Below, in pieces: positions 51,748-59,021 of a stretch of 64,000 nt of DNA. A program made the position numbers and the translations under genes. A model generated the notes under the pieces. That model saw only the letters and a program-made list of their open reading frames with translations, searched no databases and was not told the origin of the DNA. Numbering within the stretch: position 1 is the stretch's first letter; every line of letters begins with the position of its first letter. Origin of the DNA: Acidimicrobiia bacterium (GTDB taxonomy: Bacteria; Actinomycetota; Acidimicrobiia; Acidimicrobiales; VFJN01); NCBI GenBank assembly GCA_009694375.1, contig SHVB01000003.1:124001-188000 (forward strand), read 5' to 3'.

Positions 51748-52172
51748 TCAGGGATACGGGGCCGCCTGCATCGCCTCCAGGTCGGCTTCGGCAATGTCGG
51801 GACGCAGGCGAGTCGTGCTGACGCTCACCGCCCCCAGGGCCGAAAGAACCACCGCCATCCCCACCAGTTGGGTCACGCTGAGCGGCTCATCGATCCAAAG
51901 AGCGGCGGCGGCCGCCGCCAGCACAGGGATGCCCAGCGTGAGCAGCGACAACATGAGCAACGACACGTGCCCGTGGGCCAGCACCATGAGGTAATGGCCC
52001 AGCAGCCCGTTGATCACCGTGATGAACAAAATGGTGAGCCAACCGTTGGCATCGGTCACGCCCAGGGTGCCGTCGAACAGCAGCGGCAGGGGCACCACCG
52101 CCACCGCCGCCACGATCGCCATACCGGTGAGGTACTCGAGGGCGCTCAGCTCCTGACGAGCGGACTTGGAAC
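51748..52172 (-). pseudogene. EamA (DMT) transporter, 3' half, split by insertion
   Basis: Encodes the C-terminal part of an EamA transporter: KSARQELSALEYLTG then a series of transmembrane helices (AIVAAVAVVPLPLLF, ILFITVINGLLGHYLMVLAH, SLLMLSLLTLGIPVLAAAA). It lacks a start of its own; ATG 52122 is internal to the original protein. Joined to the 5' half at 55865-56395, after removal of the insertion and one target-duplication copy, it restores an uninterrupted frame of about 315 aa, a normal EamA length. Confidence 0.85.
52165..52172. repeat. Left copy of 8-bp target-site duplication
   Basis: CTTGGAAC, identical to 55865-55872, flanking the insertion. Confidence 0.85.
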
Positions 52173-52186
52173 GGGACTTCCGCGGA
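52173..52186 (+). repeat. Left terminal inverted repeat
   Basis: GGGACTTCCGCGGA; positions 52178-52189 also form a perfect 12-base palindrome CTTCCGCGGAAG. Confidence 0.8.
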
Positions 52187-52190
52187 AGGT

Positions 52191-52226
52191 TCCGCGTAAT
52201 GCTCCGCGTAATGCTCCGCGTATTGT
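52191..52226 (+). repeat. Subterminal 12-bp tandem repeats, left end
   Basis: TCCGCGTAATGC twice, then a third degenerate copy TCCGCGTATTG. Could be transposase-binding repeats. The right end has a different repeat. Confidence 0.7.
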
Positions 52227-52453: not shown

Positions 52454-52915
52454 TTATTTGGTTGGGGTGATGGGGCTGGTAGTGAGCCGTGCGGTTTCGC
52501 AGTCAGGTTCAGGGAACGCCCGGCCATCGATCAGTTCACCAACGCGATCGAACTTTGCTTTGCGTCCGCGGGTGTTTCTTATTGCGTCTTCGACTTTTTG
52601 TGACAGGTCACGGGCAGTTTCCTCGTCGAAGCCCTCACGCATAGAGGACCTCACGATATCTTGGTCGCTTCCCATCTGGAAGGCTGTTTCCTTAGCATTG
52701 GGGGCTTTGTCGTCAAATAGGACAACCTGTGGCATGTTGCGCGCTTCTGCTTCTAGGTACTCGATCATGAGTGGATCTGAGGTCAACTCACGGATTCTGG
52801 TTTCGACGTCATCGCGGATCGCGTTGTTGTTCACATCTGGTCCGGCTAACTCGGCAAGCGAATCGTTACTCGGCCGGAAGACGGAACAACTAGAAACCCC
52901 AGCAGCACACAACAC
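52454..52915 (-). CDS. Lipoprotein-like cargo protein with Ca-loop-like motif
   Basis: 153 aa from GTG 52915. The N-terminus MLCAAGVSSC looks like the end of a lipoprotein signal (lipobox Cys10) with most of the hydrophobic part missing; the frame is open only 13 codons further upstream, so the gene may be trimmed. The segment GPDVNNNAIRDDVETRI matches a DxNxNxIRDD loop often seen after lipoprotein signals in exported proteins. The remainder is helical and charged. Function unknown. Confidence 0.55.
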   Translation of the reverse strand: MLCAAGVSSCSVFRPSNDSLAELAGPDVNNNAIRDDVETRIRELTSDPLMIEYLEAEARNMPQVVLFDDKAPNAKETAFQMGSDQDIVRSSMREGFDEETARDLSQKVEDAIRNTRGRKAKFDRVGELIDGRAFPEPDCETARLTTSPITPTK

Positions 52916-53043: not shown

Positions 53044-54042
53044 ATGCGTGGAACCGCTTTAGGTAACGAACCGCCGGGGTGTGGAGATCGCCGACTCAAC
53101 CCGACAACGGTCGGTGGTGCTGTCATGGTGTTGGGTCTGGTGGCTGGAATCGCGGTTCCAGGTGCCGCAGGCGCAGATGCGCTCGCATCGCCAAATAGCC
53201 TTGATGGCAGAGATGCCACCGAGGTGGTTGATCTCTTTGGCGTTCCGGCGAGAACAATCGATTCGAACGGCCTCGTGTCGGTCGACGGGCTCGGCCTGCC
53301 GGAGGTCGACATTGCCTCTGCGGCTGGCAACGTGTTCACCTTCGGACTTCCAGCGACGCTGGCACCGACGCCGTTCGTTGTGGATTCGGCGACGTCGACC
53401 CTTACTGCAGTCGATGGGACACACGCGGTTGTCATCGAGGAACTCGGGCTGAACTCGTTCCGGGCCGTTATTGTTATGAAGAACGCGGAGGCACCGTCCG
53501 AGTACCGCTTCGACCTGGGTCTTCCTTCGGGGTGGACCGTCGCCGCAGCGACTTCGGGCGAGGTCATCGTGAGCAACAACAACGGTGGCGAGGTGGGGCG
53601 GGTAGCGCTTCCGTGGGCCGACGACGCGAACGGCACCGCGATGGACACCCGGTTCGAGGTCGTCGGCACGTCGATTGTGCAAACAATCAACACCGACGGC
53701 GCAACCTTCCCTGTCGTGGCCGACCCATCGTTCCAAGGTGACTGCGGCACCGTCACCTGTACAGTGCGCCTGGACCGCGCCCAGACGAAGAACGCTCGCG
53801 ATGCCTCTCAGCTTGTCGGTGCAGCTGCGACTATCTGTGGGGTGCTTTCGGGCGGTACCCTGGCCATCGTCTGCGGTGCAGCGATCCTCCCGGCCTCTAT
53901 AGTTCTCGCTACTTTTGCCGGCCGCTACTACGGGGATGGGAACTGCCTTGGCATTAGGTTCAACAAGTACCCCGTCCCGCCTCTTGTTACCTTCGTGGGG
54001 TGGCCCACCCAGGTGAAGTACGGCGAGTACAACTGCAAGTAG
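53044..54042 (+). CDS. Secreted cargo protein with Cys-containing hydrophobic C-terminus
   Basis: 332 aa. GGGGGAG precedes ATG 53044. Signal peptide with a long N-region and core GGAVMVLGLVAGIAVPGAAGA, cleavage near residue 44. Residues 45-230 are beta-rich and end in TINTDGATFPVVADPSF, a linker common in exported actinobacterial proteins. The C-terminal part has VRLDRAQTKNARDASQ, a hydrophobic stretch (VGAAATICGVLSGGTLAIVC) and CLGIRFNKYP ... YNCK, with several Cys. Followed by a tiny membrane-protein gene. An extracellular effector or bacteriocin-like role is only a guess. Confidence 0.65.
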   Translation: MRGTALGNEPPGCGDRRLNPTTVGGAVMVLGLVAGIAVPGAAGADALASPNSLDGRDATEVVDLFGVPARTIDSNGLVSVDGLGLPEVDIASAAGNVFTFGLPATLAPTPFVVDSATSTLTAVDGTHAVVIEELGLNSFRAVIVMKNAEAPSEYRFDLGLPSGWTVAAATSGEVIVSNNNGGEVGRVALPWADDANGTAMDTRFEVVGTSIVQTINTDGATFPVVADPSFQGDCGTVTCTVRLDRAQTKNARDASQLVGAAATICGVLSGGTLAIVCGAAILPASIVLATFAGRYYGDGNCLGIRFNKYPVPPLVTFVGWPTQVKYGEYNCK

Positions 54043-54085
54043 GCGAACAACTCCGCAGTTCAACGCACGAACCAGGAAGGATCCG

Positions 54086-54187
54086 ATGATTTTCAATATT
54101 CTTCTTTTAGCGATGGGGGCAGTTGGCATGCTGGCTGTGTTGTCCCTCAGCCGTGGAGGGAAGCACACCGCAACCAGTTCCAAGTAG
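54086..54187 (+). CDS. 33-aa single-TM peptide
   Basis: ATG 54086 follows AGGAAGG at ideal spacing. The peptide is MIFNILLLAMGAVGMLAVLS then LSRGGKHTATSSK: one transmembrane segment and a basic tail. It starts 43 bases after the secreted-protein stop. In the next frame an open stretch across its stop encodes two more membrane segments, so the two may be parts of one three-segment protein broken by a frame change. Confidence 0.55.
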   Translation: MIFNILLLAMGAVGMLAVLSLSRGGKHTATSSK

Positions 54188-54210
54188 TCGCTCTTGTCTT
54201 ACTTGTCGGC

Positions 54211-54345
54211 TTGACGGTGGTGTCGTTCGCGACCGGCGTGAGGATATTCGTCTCGATCGCATGGGCGGCGATGACTCTGTTTACGGCTGTATTCGTGGTC
54301 GGCGGATACGTGAAGCGGTCAAGGGCGTCCGGCCGGGCCTCTTGA
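54211..54345 (+). CDS. Short two-TM membrane protein, start uncertain
   Basis: The frame is open from upstream of 54121 and reads QFQVVALVLLVGLTVVSFAT, then ISIAWAAMTLFTAVFVVGG-like hydrophobic sequence and a basic end KRSRASGRAS. The only possible starts are TTG 54211 and two GTG codons after it, which cut into the first membrane segment; a -1 shift from the 33-aa gene upstream would give a complete protein. The stop TGA overlaps the next TTG (TTGA). Confidence 0.4.
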   Translation: MTVVSFATGVRIFVSIAWAAMTLFTAVFVVGGYVKRSRASGRAS

Positions 54346-55032
54346 TTGCCGACCGGCCCCGACTGCACGATCTCAGCGGGCCCGCCCTAGCGCAACGGGC
54401 GTCGCTTCACGGCGGGGCGACGCTGAGCGTGCAGGTGACAGGGCACGCCGGGAGTATCTCTCGAGGGATCAGCGCTGACGGGTCAAAGACCGATCTCGAG
54501 GACCGCTACTTGGAGTTGTTCTGCCTAGCGAAACCGATCGTCGCGTTGTCGGTGCTAGCTAGATCGAAGGGACTTGGCATCGATGTCGATGCTCCACCTG
54601 TTGGCACCGGAGTACCGGGGTCGGCAGTGCATTGCCTTCTCCGCTCTAGCGCGTCCGAGCGCGGTGCACGCCTTCTTCGTTGCTAGCTCGGGCTTCCTCG
54701 GCGAGTTGGAACGACACGTCGACGCGAGCCCGGGATCGACGGGCATCTCACGACCTGTGGTGCACGATGAGGTGCACCGGCGCGAGGTCGGGTTCTTCAG
54801 CGGATTCTTTCGGACTGACGCCGGAAGCGATCAGCGGTTCTCCACCGCCAGCGAGTCCTCCTACGTAGCGAAGATGGGCGTCGGCCTGGGGTTCGTGGTG
54901 GTACGCCCCGCTTCTGGGACTGTGGTCTCGTGCTTCGGTTCGGTTGCCGGGTTCGATCCGGGTTGGCCCGCATTCGAGATGTCCGAAGTCGCCGACCTGG
55001 TGCTCTCCTGCGACGAGGTATGTGCGACATGA
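54342..55032 (+). pseudogene. Beta-lactamase-fold hydrolase, Cys at nucleophile position, frameshifted
   Basis: TTG 54342 overlaps the preceding stop. The first frame reads LSVQVTGHAGSISRG, then DLEDRYLELFCLAKPIVALSVL and GIDVDAP; this is the N-terminal half of a PBP/class C beta-lactamase-like domain, with CLAK (61-64) where SxxK is expected. After Pro85 (54594-54596) homology continues one base ahead, as APEYRGRQCIAFSALARPSAVHAF, then VGFFSGFFRTD, GLGFVVVRPASGTVV, to 55032. Removing one base from CTCCACC joins both. About 229 aa if repaired. The ATGA at its end couples it to the next gene. Confidence 0.6.
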
Positions 55033-55757
55033 TTATCGAGTTGAGGACACCGCAGTGGGCCGCTGTAGGCGACCTTGTCACAGGCACCTGGGTCGGCGAC
55101 GAACGGGAACCGCAACTCAGCGTCGCAGTGTCATGCTGGCCGCTACACCTTCGCTCCTTCTCTCCGGCGCTTCAACTACCTGACAGTCCAGTCTCGACGG
55201 TCGATCGCGGGAACGGCCCGCTCATCCCGATCGGATGCCGCCCATCAGGCACCCGGCTGCTGCCTGACCTCGCTGACGTCAGAGTCGAGGTGATCTTGCT
55301 CGGGCACCCCTATGGGCAAGGCCAGCTCGCCCTGCGGATCGGGTCGTTGAGCGGCCACGTCACTGCTGTGCTGGAGCAGGTCGAGGACGGCCCCGTCACC
55401 GTCGACGCGCCACACCTAACGATTACCATGGACTGGTGGCGAGCCGTTCAGTGGCTGGGCGACGGTCACACACTCTTTGCTGATCTGGCACAGTCTCAGA
55501 TCGAGATTTCCGGGCATCTCGGTTGTCTCAGCTGGCTTGAGGGTGTGCGGTTCGCTGCGGGACTAGTGGAGCCGGAATGGCGCAGCGGCGATCTCATCGA
55601 GTTCGCACGCCTATGGTCACATGGGGCGCGCCGGCTGAGTTCAACCCTGCCAACCGAGTACTCGCAGCGCCTAGCGAACAAGGCAACTCCGACTGCCTTT
55701 CCCACAGCAGCACACGACATCCCAGCCGGGCAGATAGGCCACCAACCCCGCTCTTAA
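55029..55757 (+). CDS. Cargo protein with SCP2-like C-terminal region
   Basis: 242 aa from ATG 55029, overlapping the hydrolase stop (ATGA). The N-terminal half is unassigned and rich in beta and Pro (PQLSVAVSCWPLHLRSF). Residues about 120-190 (VTVDAPHLTITMDWWRAVQW, then GDGHTLFADLAQSQIEISGHLGC) resemble an SCP2-type lipid-binding domain. Last gene of the cargo, ending just before the right-end repeats. Confidence 0.5.
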   Translation: MIIELRTPQWAAVGDLVTGTWVGDEREPQLSVAVSCWPLHLRSFSPALQLPDSPVSTVDRGNGPLIPIGCRPSGTRLLPDLADVRVEVILLGHPYGQGQLALRIGSLSGHVTAVLEQVEDGPVTVDAPHLTITMDWWRAVQWLGDGHTLFADLAQSQIEISGHLGCLSWLEGVRFAAGLVEPEWRSGDLIEFARLWSHGARRLSSTLPTEYSQRLANKATPTAFPTAAHDIPAGQIGHQPRS

Positions 55758-55760
55758 TGC

Positions 55761-55797
55761 GGTTTCGCGTTCCAAGAACCGTGGTTTCGCGTTCCAA
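55761..55797 (+). repeat. Subterminal direct repeats, right end of element
   Basis: GGTTTCGCGTTCCAA at 55761-55775 and again at 55783-55797, 22 bases apart. Confidence 0.75.
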
Positions 55798-55850
55798 AAA
55801 CACTCTGTTTGGGGTGCGCACCTTGTTGATAAACCCAGGTAGATAGGTAA

Positions 55851-55864
55851 TCCGCGGATGTCCC
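55851..55864 (-). repeat. Right terminal inverted repeat
   Basis: TCCGCGGATGTCCC on the plus strand, the inverse of the left end with one mismatch. Confidence 0.8.
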
Positions 55865-55872
55865 CTTGGAAC
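55865..55872. repeat. Right copy of 8-bp target-site duplication
   Basis: CTTGGAAC, identical to 52165-52172. Confidence 0.85.
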
Positions 55873-56407: not shown

Positions 56408-56486
56408 GAGGAGACGCGGGCGCGGTCACGGCCATATATCCTCCCCTCGCCGAGGGCCGCCCCGAGGATGCAGACCCCGGCGAGAT

Positions 56487-56747
56487 TCACTGACATCGGC
56501 GTCCGGTAGCCACTTTCCCAAGGCCGTAATTACCGAACCTGGCGGCACCGCTCCGAATGACGACGTCGTGGGAGGAGTTCTTCGTCTCGACCAAGAAGAT
56601 CCCGGTCGGGCCCATCACGATGTGGTCGATGGTCGCCCGGGATCCGGGAAACGGCAGGTCGTGGACCACGGTGAAGGTGCCGGGGAGGTGGATGGGAGTG
56701 CCCGCGGTAAGGCGTTTGCCGCCGCTCCCTTCGGCGGAGGTTCGGCT
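56487..56747 (-). pseudogene. NERD-domain nuclease-related protein fragment
   Basis: In frame directly after the copA stop (TAG 56748-56750), the sequence reads GTFTVVHDLPFPGSRATIDH then IVMGPTGIFLVETKNSSHDV, the core of a NERD domain (with the GPTGxFxxxxK stretch). Both ends are missing: nothing upstream because copA is there, and a stop at 56487. Only a GTG is available as a start. Probably a leftover of a larger gene; its closeness to the split eamA suggests this stretch has been rearranged. Confidence 0.6.
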
Positions 56748-59021
56748 CTAGGAGCTATCCGAGCACGGGCGCAGAGCCCGCTCGGCCGGGGTGGGCTGAA
56801 ACCGGAAGAGACGCAGGCTATTGGCCACCACCAGGACCGACGACGCCGCCATGGCAAAGCCCGCCAGCATCGGATTCAACAGCCCGGCGGCGGCTAAGGG
56901 AATGAGGGCGAAGTTGTAACCGAAGGCCCACCCCAGGTTGACCTTGATCGTGCGCAGGGTACGCCGAGAAAGCCGGATTGCATCCACCGCCGCATCGAGA
57001 TCGGCCCGCACCAAGGTGAGGTCAGCGGCGGCCATGGCAGCGTCGGTCCCGCTGCCCATGGCGAGCCCCAGATCAGCCTGAGCCAGAGCGGCGGCATCAT
57101 TCACCCCGTCTCCCACCACCGCCACCACCCGACCTTCCGCCTGGAGGCGTCGAACCTCGGCAACCTTTCCCTGAGGGAGCACTCCCGCCACCACACGCTC
57201 GATTCCCACGTCCCCCGCCACGGCCTGGGCCGCCAGCGCATGGTCGCCAGTCACCAGGACCGGCTCGAGCCCGAGCGCTCCGAGCGTTGCGATGGCCCGC
57301 CGTGAACTGGGCCGCACCGTGTCGGCTACCACCGCAATGAGACCTACTTCGCCATCCCACGCCACCGCCACCGCCGTACGGCCCTGCTGCTCGGCCCGCT
57401 CATGGACCTCGAACAATCGCGCCGGTAGACGGTAGCCCGCTCCCGTGAGGTGGCTCAGTCGACCCGCCGCCACCGAGCGTCCCGCCACCACCCCGCTCAC
57501 CCCGAGCCCGGCGGCCGACTCGAAGCCCGACACGGGAAGGTGCCGATCTCCCGGCACGGCCGCCGCGATCACCCGGGCGATGGGGTGCTCGCTGGCCGCC
57601 TCGAGGCTGGCGGCGAGGGCGAGCGCCCAATCGGCGTCCACCCCATCGGCCACCACCACCTCCACCAGGGTCATCCGGCCCGTCGTGACGGTACCGGTCT
57701 TGTCGAGTACCACCGTGTCGACTCGACGAGTGGCTTCGAGAATCTCCGGCCCGGCGATCAGCACACCGATCTGGGCACCCCGGCCGGTCCCCACCAAGAG
57801 GGCCATGGGGGTAGCCAAACCCAGCGCACAGGGGCAGGCCACGATGAGCACGGCCACCGCCGGCACCATGGCCGCCGCCACGGAATCGCCGCGGGCGCAC
57901 CAGTACCCGAAAGTGGCTATCGCGATGAGAATGACGATCGGCACAAAAACGGCGGCGACGCGATCGGCCAGCCGCTGCACCGGGGCTTTCCCCGACTGGG
58001 CATCGGCCACCAACTTCGCCATACGAGCCAACGTGGTGTCGGCGCCCACCCGAGTGACCTCCACCACCAGGCGTCCGCCGGCGTTCAGCGTCGCGCCGGT
58101 GACAGCATCGCCCACCGTGACCTCCACGGGGATGGACTCCCCAGTCACCAACGCGGCATCGATGGCGGCGGCGCCTTCCACCACCCGCCCATCCGTGGCG
58201 ATCTTCTCGCCCGGCCGCACCACGAAACGATCACCCACCACCAGCGCTTCCACCGGCACCCGCTCTTCTCCCCGCGCGCCGATGCGGGCTACGTCATGGG
58301 CTCCCAACTCGGCGAGGGCGCGCAGCGCATCCCCGCCCCGCCGTCGAGCGCGCTCTTCGAACCAACGGCCGGCTAACAAAAATAGCGTGATGGCGGCCAC
58401 CACTTCGAAGTAGACGGCGCTGGCGGCGTGGGCTCGGTCGGCGGTGAAGGAGAACTCGTTGTGCATGCTCGCCGCCGCGTCCCAGTTGAAGCACACCACC
58501 CACGACGACCAGGTAAAGGCCACCGTCACGCCAACCGACACCAGGGTGTCCATCGTCGCGGTGGCGTGGCGGAGGTTCACCGCCGCCGCCCGATGGAAGG
58601 GCCACGCTCCCCAAGTAGCGATCGGGAAGGTGAGCACCAACGCGACCCACTGCCAGTGGGTGAACTGCCAGGCCGGCACCATCCCCAACAGAATGACAGG
58701 GACGCCGAGCACCGCCACGACGCCAACCCGACGTCCGAGCGCATCCACGCGGCTGTTCTCCGGCGAAATCGGGGCGCCATCGAGCGGGGGTAGGCGAGCC
58801 TCGTATCCCGCCCCCTCCACCACGGCGATGAGGGTGGCCGGATCAAGCGACACCGGTCCCTCAACGCGCGCCGATTCCAACGCATAGTTCACGGTGGCCG
58901 AGACGCCATCGACCTTGTTGAGCGTCCGTTCGATACGCGCCGCACAGGCCGCGCACGTCATGCCGCCGATACGGAGATCGATCGTGGTCCTCTTCGCCTC
59001 AGCCGTACTGGCCATAGCCAC
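56748..59021 (-). CDS. copA: Copper-exporting P1B-type ATPase
   Basis: 757 aa. One N-terminal heavy-metal domain with GMTCAAC (20-26); transmembrane helices; actuator TGES (293-296); CPC metal-transport motif (396-398) in ACPCALGLATPMA; phosphorylated Asp440 in DKTGT; ASEHPIARV. All expected residues are present, so it should pump Cu(I) out of the cell. Third gene of the csoR-copZ-copA operon. Confidence 0.95.
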   Translation of the reverse strand: MAMASTAEAKRTTIDLRIGGMTCAACAARIERTLNKVDGVSATVNYALESARVEGPVSLDPATLIAVVEGAGYEARLPPLDGAPISPENSRVDALGRRVGVVAVLGVPVILLGMVPAWQFTHWQWVALVLTFPIATWGAWPFHRAAAVNLRHATATMDTLVSVGVTVAFTWSSWVVCFNWDAAASMHNEFSFTADRAHAASAVYFEVVAAITLFLLAGRWFEERARRRGGDALRALAELGAHDVARIGARGEERVPVEALVVGDRFVVRPGEKIATDGRVVEGAAAIDAALVTGESIPVEVTVGDAVTGATLNAGGRLVVEVTRVGADTTLARMAKLVADAQSGKAPVQRLADRVAAVFVPIVILIAIATFGYWCARGDSVAAAMVPAVAVLIVACPCALGLATPMALLVGTGRGAQIGVLIAGPEILEATRRVDTVVLDKTGTVTTGRMTLVEVVVADGVDADWALALAASLEAASEHPIARVIAAAVPGDRHLPVSGFESAAGLGVSGVVAGRSVAAGRLSHLTGAGYRLPARLFEVHERAEQQGRTAVAVAWDGEVGLIAVVADTVRPSSRRAIATLGALGLEPVLVTGDHALAAQAVAGDVGIERVVAGVLPQGKVAEVRRLQAEGRVVAVVGDGVNDAAALAQADLGLAMGSGTDAAMAAADLTLVRADLDAAVDAIRLSRRTLRTIKVNLGWAFGYNFALIPLAAAGLLNPMLAGFAMAASSVLVVANSLRLFRFQPTPAERALRPCSDSS

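What the first reader, a model, noticed from the sequence alone, without database searches (positions are those of the whole stretch)
53044..55757. Possible undescribed cargo system: secreted protein, tiny membrane proteins, Cys-type hydrolase, lipid-carrier-like protein
Four or five plus-strand genes follow each other closely, the last three linked by TTGA and ATGA overlaps. The set of an exported Cys-rich protein, a 33-aa membrane peptide plus a short two-segment membrane protein, a beta-lactamase-fold enzyme and an SCP2-like protein does not match a system I know. An effector with membrane immunity and a processing enzyme is one possible reading; lipid or envelope modification is another.
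Basis: inference. Interest (0 to 1): 0.72.

Follow-up and report, generated by a model that had tools for sequence, protein, structure and literature searches.

The report
Jumping secreted-toxin and immunity gene cassette
A 3.7-kb mobile DNA segment has broken a transporter gene in an environmental actinobacterium; it carries what looks like a secreted membrane-acting toxin, remains of a small membrane protein that would protect the producer, and an unusual enzyme and lipid-binding-like protein pair that travels with several exported-protein genes, the enzyme being broken in this copy.

Summary
It splits an EamA transporter gene that is intact in a sister species, and encodes no recognisable transposase. 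ORF1 is an exported protein. Its N-terminal module is shared with actinobacterial RHS/DNRLRE proteins and with proteins ending in PLA2-like or DUF4258 domains; its own C-terminal domain is hydrophobic with conserved cysteines. A small membrane protein directly follows 15 of 21 homologues, against 5 of 84 control genes, which fits toxin plus immunity. One distant genome (L029) keeps the order intact: ORF1, 2-TM protein, Cys-nucleophile (CxxK) beta-lactamase-fold enzyme, ORF5-like protein. In the window the enzyme has lost about 126 residues with a frameshift, so this copy is decayed. The enzyme family has an invariant Cys; it pairs with ORF5-like (weakly SCP2-like) proteins behind other exported proteins, and relatives sit beside lipoate and acyl-CoA genes. 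Best reading: a mobile secreted-toxin/immunity cassette with an acyl-handling accessory pair, broken here. Toxicity, immunity and acylation are inferred.

The parts
52165..52172 (.). left copy of the 8-bp target-site duplication CTTGGAAC
   Evidence: identical to 55865-55872; joining the flanks restores the EamA frame; empty site in sister genome
52173..52186 (+). left terminal inverted repeat GGGACTTCCGCGGA, outer end of the element
   Evidence: exact match to pattern, one of only two in 2.58 Mb
52179..52222 (+). 12-bp subterminal tandem repeat, 3.7 copies (TCCGCGTAATGC)
52454..52915 (-). 153-aa ORF inside the element, no family match; role unknown
   Evidence: frame GC bias
53044..54042 (+). 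ORF1: exported protein, N-terminal module ending in PVVADP (about residue 228) plus Cys/hydrophobic C-terminal domain; candidate toxin
   Evidence: homologues in 10 of 296 class genomes including the window's own, 21 plasmid records, 17 of 396 phylum genomes including its own by profile
54086..54187 (+). ORF2: 33-aa hydrophobic peptide; may be the start of a broken membrane-protein gene
54211..54345 (+). ORF3: remnant of small two-segment membrane protein (candidate immunity), frame open from about 54100 without a usual start
   Evidence: positional counterpart L029:5761-5964
54342..54599 (+). ORF4 5' piece: Cys-type (CLAK) beta-lactamase-fold enzyme, residues 25-82 of the intact homologue
   Evidence: BLASTP E 2e-10
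54574..55032 (+). ORF4 3' piece in another frame, matching residues 209-284 of the intact homologue; about 126 residues between are deleted
   Evidence: BLASTP E 8e-6; frame GC change
55029..55757 (+). ORF5: 242-aa weakly SCP2-like protein, partner of the Cys-type enzyme
   Evidence: BLASTP E 2e-9 to L029 partner; profile ranking
55761..55801 (+). two subterminal direct repeats (GGTTTCGCGTTCCAA...), spacing 22
   Evidence: family D4
55851..55864 (-). right terminal inverted repeat GGGACATCCGCGGA
55865..55872 (.). right copy of the target-site duplication CTTGGAAC
51748..52172 (-). C-terminal part of the interrupted EamA transporter gene
   Evidence: Pfam EamA E 7.8e-8; joined frame 315 aa
55873..56395 (-). 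N-terminal part of the interrupted EamA transporter gene
   Evidence: Pfam EamA E 4.1e-13; 95% identical gene in an unbroken frame in G654

Best explanation
A secreted-toxin/immunity cassette carried by a small transposable element that encodes no recognisable transposase (presumably moved in trans). ORF1 is exported through its N-terminal signal; its beta-rich module presents a C-terminal hydrophobic, cysteine-bearing domain that inserts into or damages the membrane of related cells. The small two-segment membrane protein encoded next protects the producer. In intact relatives a cytoplasmic Cys-nucleophile enzyme of the serine beta-lactamase/family VIII esterase fold and an SCP2-like partner prepare or modify the exported product, probably by acyl-thioester chemistry. 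In this copy the enzyme is deleted and frameshifted, so at most toxin and immunity remain. Shown: element, insertion, gene order, conservation, Cys/Lys/Tyr motif, damage. Inferred: toxicity, immunity, tailoring, acyl chemistry.
For: Element: TIR/TSD, empty site in a same-genus genome, 93.1% over 1,725 bp without gaps. Toxin class: module shared with RHS/DNRLRE giants (L120, L133, L137), PLA2-like (L033 Pfam E 1.8e-5, below the curated cut-off; L036 by motif) and DUF4258 followed by DUF2283 (L020; sub-threshold Pfam E 4.5e-4). Immunity: small TM ORF downstream in 15 of 21 homologues against 5 of 84 controls, 13 of 19 after collapsing three similar Streptomyces proteins. Operon: same order in L029 with BLASTP E 9e-19 (ORF1), 2e-10 and 8e-6 (enzyme pieces) and 2e-9 (ORF5). 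Enzyme: Cys invariant in 10 of 10, Lys in 9 of 10, Tyr-Ser in 10 of 10; Cys aligns with the Ser of the SxxK motif of family VIII-type esterases. Acyl link: relatives in L193/L192/L187 lie with LipB-LipA, acyl-CoA dehydrogenase and an SCP2-like protein.
Against: No activity has been tested. The TM proteins are not one sequence family, so immunity rests on position. Six of 21 homologues, the window among them, fail the TM rule. The enzyme pair also sits behind non-toxin-like genes: an M10-like protease (L188) and respiratory molybdoenzyme-like genes (L190), so its tie to toxins may be incidental. AlphaFold models were poor (mean pLDDT 41 and 33) and give no fold for the toxin domain or ORF5. The TIR pair occurs in only this one of 168 relatives, so repeated mobility in this clade is not shown.
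Confidence: 0.6

Rival explanations
1. An envelope or lipid-handling system: the Cys enzyme and SCP2-like protein are the core, a general exported-protein or lipid tailoring pair, and ORF1 is one of many unrelated exported substrates, not a toxin.
For: The enzyme/partner pair follows different exported proteins (L180, L183, L188, L181/L184) and a respiratory gene set (L190); relatives sit beside LipB-LipA and acyl-CoA dehydrogenase.
Against: ORF1 homologues mostly occur without the pair but with a small TM gene; the ORF1 module is shared with polymorphic-toxin-type proteins.
Confidence: 0.25
2. A dead passenger: a degraded cassette with no present function, left by one transposition event.
For: Enzyme deleted and frameshifted, TM gene without a normal start, single copy, no transposase match among the element's scanned ORFs.
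Against: ORF1 (332 codons) and ORF5 (242 codons) are open with coding-type GC bias; the empty site shows an insertion after the split from G654. This can be true of the copy while the family is functional.
Confidence: 0.45
3. A new ribosomal-peptide (RiPP-like) pathway: the Cys enzyme cleaves, cyclises or amidates the exported peptide.
For: PBP-fold enzymes include peptide-acting members among the profile's matches (Ulm16 cyclase 8fek, ClbP, D-aminopeptidase); L181 and L184 have short Cys/Gly-Ala-rich exported peptides followed by a 2-TM protein and the enzyme.
Against: The enzyme has no evident signal peptide in L029 (start MNMACTSERIEQ, read by eye) while ORF1 carries one, so contact would have to precede export; best profile matches are esterases.
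Confidence: 0.2

Closest known systems
Polymorphic toxin systems (RHS/DNRLRE, secreted PLA2 and DUF4258 toxins; Zhang et al. 2012, PMC3482391, passages seen)
   Same: shared N-terminal module, swapped C-terminal domains, small gene directly downstream
   Different: short single-module carrier, no RHS repeats in ORF1, unclassified C-terminal domain, extra enzyme/SCP2-like pair in two genomes
TMcin bacteriocins (PMC13252029: abstract, introduction and first part of Results read)
   Same: export-linked membrane-active product with a conserved Cys pair; L029 also has ABC transporter genes
   Different: no sequence relation tested; TMcin clusters use a DUF3267 protease and DsbA-type protein, not seen among the genes scanned here; precursor is a short single-TM peptide
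Serine beta-lactamase / family VIII esterase / S12 peptidase fold (PF00144)
   Same: profile E 3.3e-20 to esterase 5gkv; SxxK, Y and HxG positions align
   Different: nucleophile position is Cys in 10 of 10 aligned members; paired with an ORF5-like protein
SCP2 (sterol carrier protein 2) family
   Same: best PDB match is the fatty-acid-binding protein 4jgx; Pfam SCP2 is the match for one member
   Different: no score reaches significance (E 0.13, 1.5)
Transposase-less TIR elements carrying passenger genes (mobile insertion cassettes; papers seen in listing only)
   Same: inverted ends, target duplication, cargo, no transposase recognised
   Different: parental element and transposase family not identified; cargo is a toxin/immunity-type set

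Membership tests
Polymorphic toxin / immunity system | conserved N-terminal module with exchangeable C-terminal domains | tested here: met
   hydrophobic/Cys, PLA2-like and DUF4258 ends, and RHS/DNRLRE giants share the module
Polymorphic toxin / immunity system | cognate immunity gene directly downstream | tested here: inconclusive
   small TM gene in 15 of 21 homologues against 5 of 84 controls; protection untested; window copy looks damaged
Polymorphic toxin / immunity system | toxic activity of the C-terminal domain | not testable with these tools
   no experiment possible; AF2 model of this region below pLDDT 50
Serine beta-lactamase-fold enzymes (PF00144) | fold and profile match | tested here: met
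   L029 enzyme E 2.8e-13; window pieces alone give no such Pfam match
Serine beta-lactamase-fold enzymes (PF00144) | SxxK catalytic serine | tested here: not met
   Cys in 10 of 10 aligned and in 19 of 21 enzyme loci; Ser in L199 and L200
SCP2 domain family (PF02036) | significant profile match | tested here: inconclusive
   1 of 11 members E 0.13; PDB 4jgx E 0.13 and 1.5; window ORF5 alone no match
TIR/TSD transposable element | inverted ends plus target duplication plus empty site | tested here: met
TIR/TSD transposable element | encodes its transposase | tested here: not met
   no transposase match among the element's scanned ORFs; genome-wide only PF01610 was searched, none
TMcin bacteriocins | DUF3267 protease and DsbA-like gene in the cluster | tested here: not met
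   none among the genes of the window element and L029 that were scanned; only those were scanned

The most novel reading that the evidence does not exclude
The Cys-nucleophile beta-lactamase-fold enzyme and its SCP2-like partner form an undescribed acyl-transfer pair, derived from a lipoate/acyl-CoA gene neighbourhood, that lipidates or otherwise acyl-tailors exported antibacterial proteins in this order of actinobacteria, a counterpart in logic to acylation of RTX toxins by HlyC with acyl carrier protein (that comparison is recalled).
Probability: 0.17. Interest if true: 0.82.

Novelty: new variant of a known kind. Interest (0 to 1): 0.6.

Why it matters
If right, it links three things that the searches made here did not find linked in print: short polymorphic-toxin carriers with membrane-type immunity in environmental actinobacteria, a Cys-for-Ser branch of the beta-lactamase fold with an invariant nucleophile, and an SCP2-like partner that travels with it. 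The enzyme branch is directly testable for thioester chemistry. The empty/occupied site pair also shows that such a cassette can move as a small element that inactivates a transporter gene.

Tried and rejected
Integron cassette or attC site: looked for by eye only; rejected because the TIR/TSD and empty site explain the ends. ISL3-type element (8-bp duplication, GGG-type ends, recalled): PF01610 not found in the genome; transposase family left open. Plasmid copy of the whole element: none. ORF5 and the enzyme 5' piece in plasmids: none. Relation of the L181 exported peptide to ORF1: none by BLASTP, so the exported partners of the enzyme pair are not one family. Relation of the partners in L188 and L190 to ORF5: not shown (not recovered, nor was L191). 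AlphaFold of ORF1 and ORF5 with two-sequence alignments: too poor to search with, so no fold search was run. PADLOC and PHROGs: nothing useful. Genome-wide scan for the ELFC(x)AKP motif: 74 loci, of which only L049 matched the operon genes by tblastn at E 0.01; the window's own records may be left out by that tool. Paper searches for the gene set showed no description, judged from listings; they cover open-licence papers only.
Full report
1. What is there. The window is part of contig C3 of a 2.58-Mb, 36-contig genome. The genes sit in a 3,692-bp insert of lower GC. Its ends are GGGACTTCCGCGGA (52173-52186, plus) and GGGACATCCGCGGA (55851-55864, minus), flanked by the direct repeat CTTGGAAC. 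With one mismatch allowed the end pattern occurs three times in the genome; only these two are exact. In a control scan of the window for 8-bp direct repeats flanking inverted 14-mers, 8 pairs had at least 11 of 14 matches and only this one had 13. Joining the flanks gives one EamA reading frame of 315 aa; both halves match EamA in Pfam. A genome of the same genus (G654, L158) has the uninterrupted gene, aligning to the joined flanks at 93.1% over 1,725 bp without gaps. No ORF of the insert that was scanned resembles a transposase. The TIR pair was found in the window's genome only; 6 other genomes of 168 had a single match each.

2. ORF1. No Pfam, NCBIfam, PHROGs or PADLOC match. Homologues: 10 of 296 class genomes including its own, 21 of 72,556 plasmid records, none covering 80% of the query, and 17 of 396 phylum genomes including its own by a nine-sequence profile. 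The nine aligned members share a module ending in P-V/I-V/T/I-A-D-P. What follows differs among homologues: a hydrophobic domain with a conserved Cys near the C terminus (window, L029, L030, L031, L035, L015-L018 and others), PLA2-like ends (L033 Pfam E 1.8e-5, under the curated cut-off; L036 by motif), DUF4258 (L020, E 4.5e-4, under cut-off; followed by DUF2283), or long RHS/DNRLRE-type proteins. This is the pattern of polymorphic toxins.

3. Small membrane neighbours. For 21 homologues I looked for an ORF of 50-200 aa with a hydrophobic segment starting -60 to +250 nt from the stop: 15 of 21, against 6 of 85 control genes, one of which proved to be the L019 homologue itself, hence 5 of 84 (Fisher p 1e-9; 13 of 19 after collapsing L014, L016 and L018, p 2e-8). 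The L033 positive is an overlapping out-of-frame ORF; its likely true neighbour is a 298-aa eight-segment protein. Negative: window, L020, L036, L116, L118, L121. Not tested: L013, L120, L122-L138 and 14 plasmid records that I did not open. The sequences are related, so the p-values overstate independence. A small membrane gene after a membrane-acting toxin suggests immunity; this is inference.

4. The intact operon. The window copy keeps the order. Its enzyme pieces match residues 25-82 and 209-284 in different frames, so about 126 residues, including the YSE motif, are gone. A frameshift in a draft genome could be an assembly error; a deletion of that size is less likely to be.

5. The Cys enzyme. 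A search of 397 order genomes with the L029 enzyme gave 19 with matches, including the window's own. I opened 22 loci: an enzyme was found in 21, with Cys in the nucleophile position in 19 and Ser in 2 (L199, L200). In an alignment of 10 the Cys is invariant, the motif Lys is in 9 (Arg in L190), and Tyr-Ser is invariant. The profile matches 51 PDB sequences at E 0.001 or better, best esterase 5gkv at 3.3e-20, with Cys over the Ser of its SxxK motif. NCBIfam: 3 of 10 members match LipL, 2 LipE, 1 AcmB (none for the L029 member alone).

6. The partner. In 9 of the 22 loci an ORF of 136-266 aa overlaps the enzyme's stop (L029, L180, L181, L183, L184, L188, L190, L191, L198); in L182 it lies 677 nt further on. 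A profile from L181-L184 run on 5,679 ORFs of 153 loci ranked, after the seeds, L198 (4.8e-11), window ORF5 (0.017), L180 (0.027), L192 (0.069), L193 (0.19), L194 (0.27), L029 (0.49) and L187 (0.9), all from enzyme loci; the next were unrelated loci. L188, L190 and L191 were not recovered, and a profile comparison of L188+L190 gave nothing. SCP2 is the best but non-significant fold match.

7. What the pair sits beside. Upstream: ORF1 and TM gene (window, L029); short Cys/Gly-Ala-rich exported peptide and 2-TM protein (L181, L184); a 1,286-aa exported Cys-rich protein (L183); an exported 207-aa protein (L180); an M10-like protease and a lipoprotein-like protein (L188, Pfam M10 E 2.8e-6); ABC transporter-like genes (L191, by eye); respiratory molybdoenzyme-like genes (L190, by eye); nothing evident (L182); unclear (L198). 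In L187, L192 and L193 a related enzyme sits with LipB-LipA, an SCP2-like protein and acyl-CoA dehydrogenase (Pfam was run on L193 and, for the dehydrogenase, L187). Profile comparison of the two SCP2-like groups gave E 8e-4 but probability 24%. This is why I favour acyl or thioester chemistry, at low confidence. Exported character was judged by hydropathy and eye, not by a signal-peptide program.

8. Verdict. The window copy is a decayed one, in an element that the finding did not describe. The toxin/immunity part belongs to a known kind (polymorphic toxins); the Cys-enzyme/SCP2-like pair is the unusual part. I read abstract, introduction and first part of Results of PMC13252029 and passages of PMC3482391; other papers were seen as listings only.

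Noticed in passing
window 56425-56764: About 340 bp present here but absent from the sister genome G654 (L158), with a 10-bp overlap at the junction; holds a short ORF (56487-56669, minus) that reads like a NERD-domain fragment (recalled). Possible second small insertion.
   Followed up: partly
L193:3551-9588, L192:908-7385, L187:539-6758: Recurring chromosomal order LipB-LipA fusion, SCP2-like, acyl-CoA dehydrogenase, Cys-type PF00144 enzyme, 285-287-aa membrane protein in relatives; the enzyme there has a YCTAKP motif.
   Followed up: partly
window 52454-52915 (minus): 153-aa ORF inside the element with no family match; divergent from ORF1 and possibly part of the cassette.
   Followed up: partly
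L181:6475-6870 and L184:5566-5928 (minus): Short exported Cys/Gly-Ala-rich peptides followed by a 2-TM protein and the Cys enzyme; look like bacteriocin precursors; the L181 one is unrelated to ORF1 by BLASTP.
   Followed up: partly
L183:5764-9624 (minus): 1,286-aa exported protein with CPxGQHRHG...C repeats directly upstream of a Cys enzyme and SCP2-like partner.
   Followed up: no
L188:2122-3231: IS630-like transposase (by eye) next to an exported protease, lipoprotein and Cys-enzyme set in the sister genome G654.
   Followed up: no
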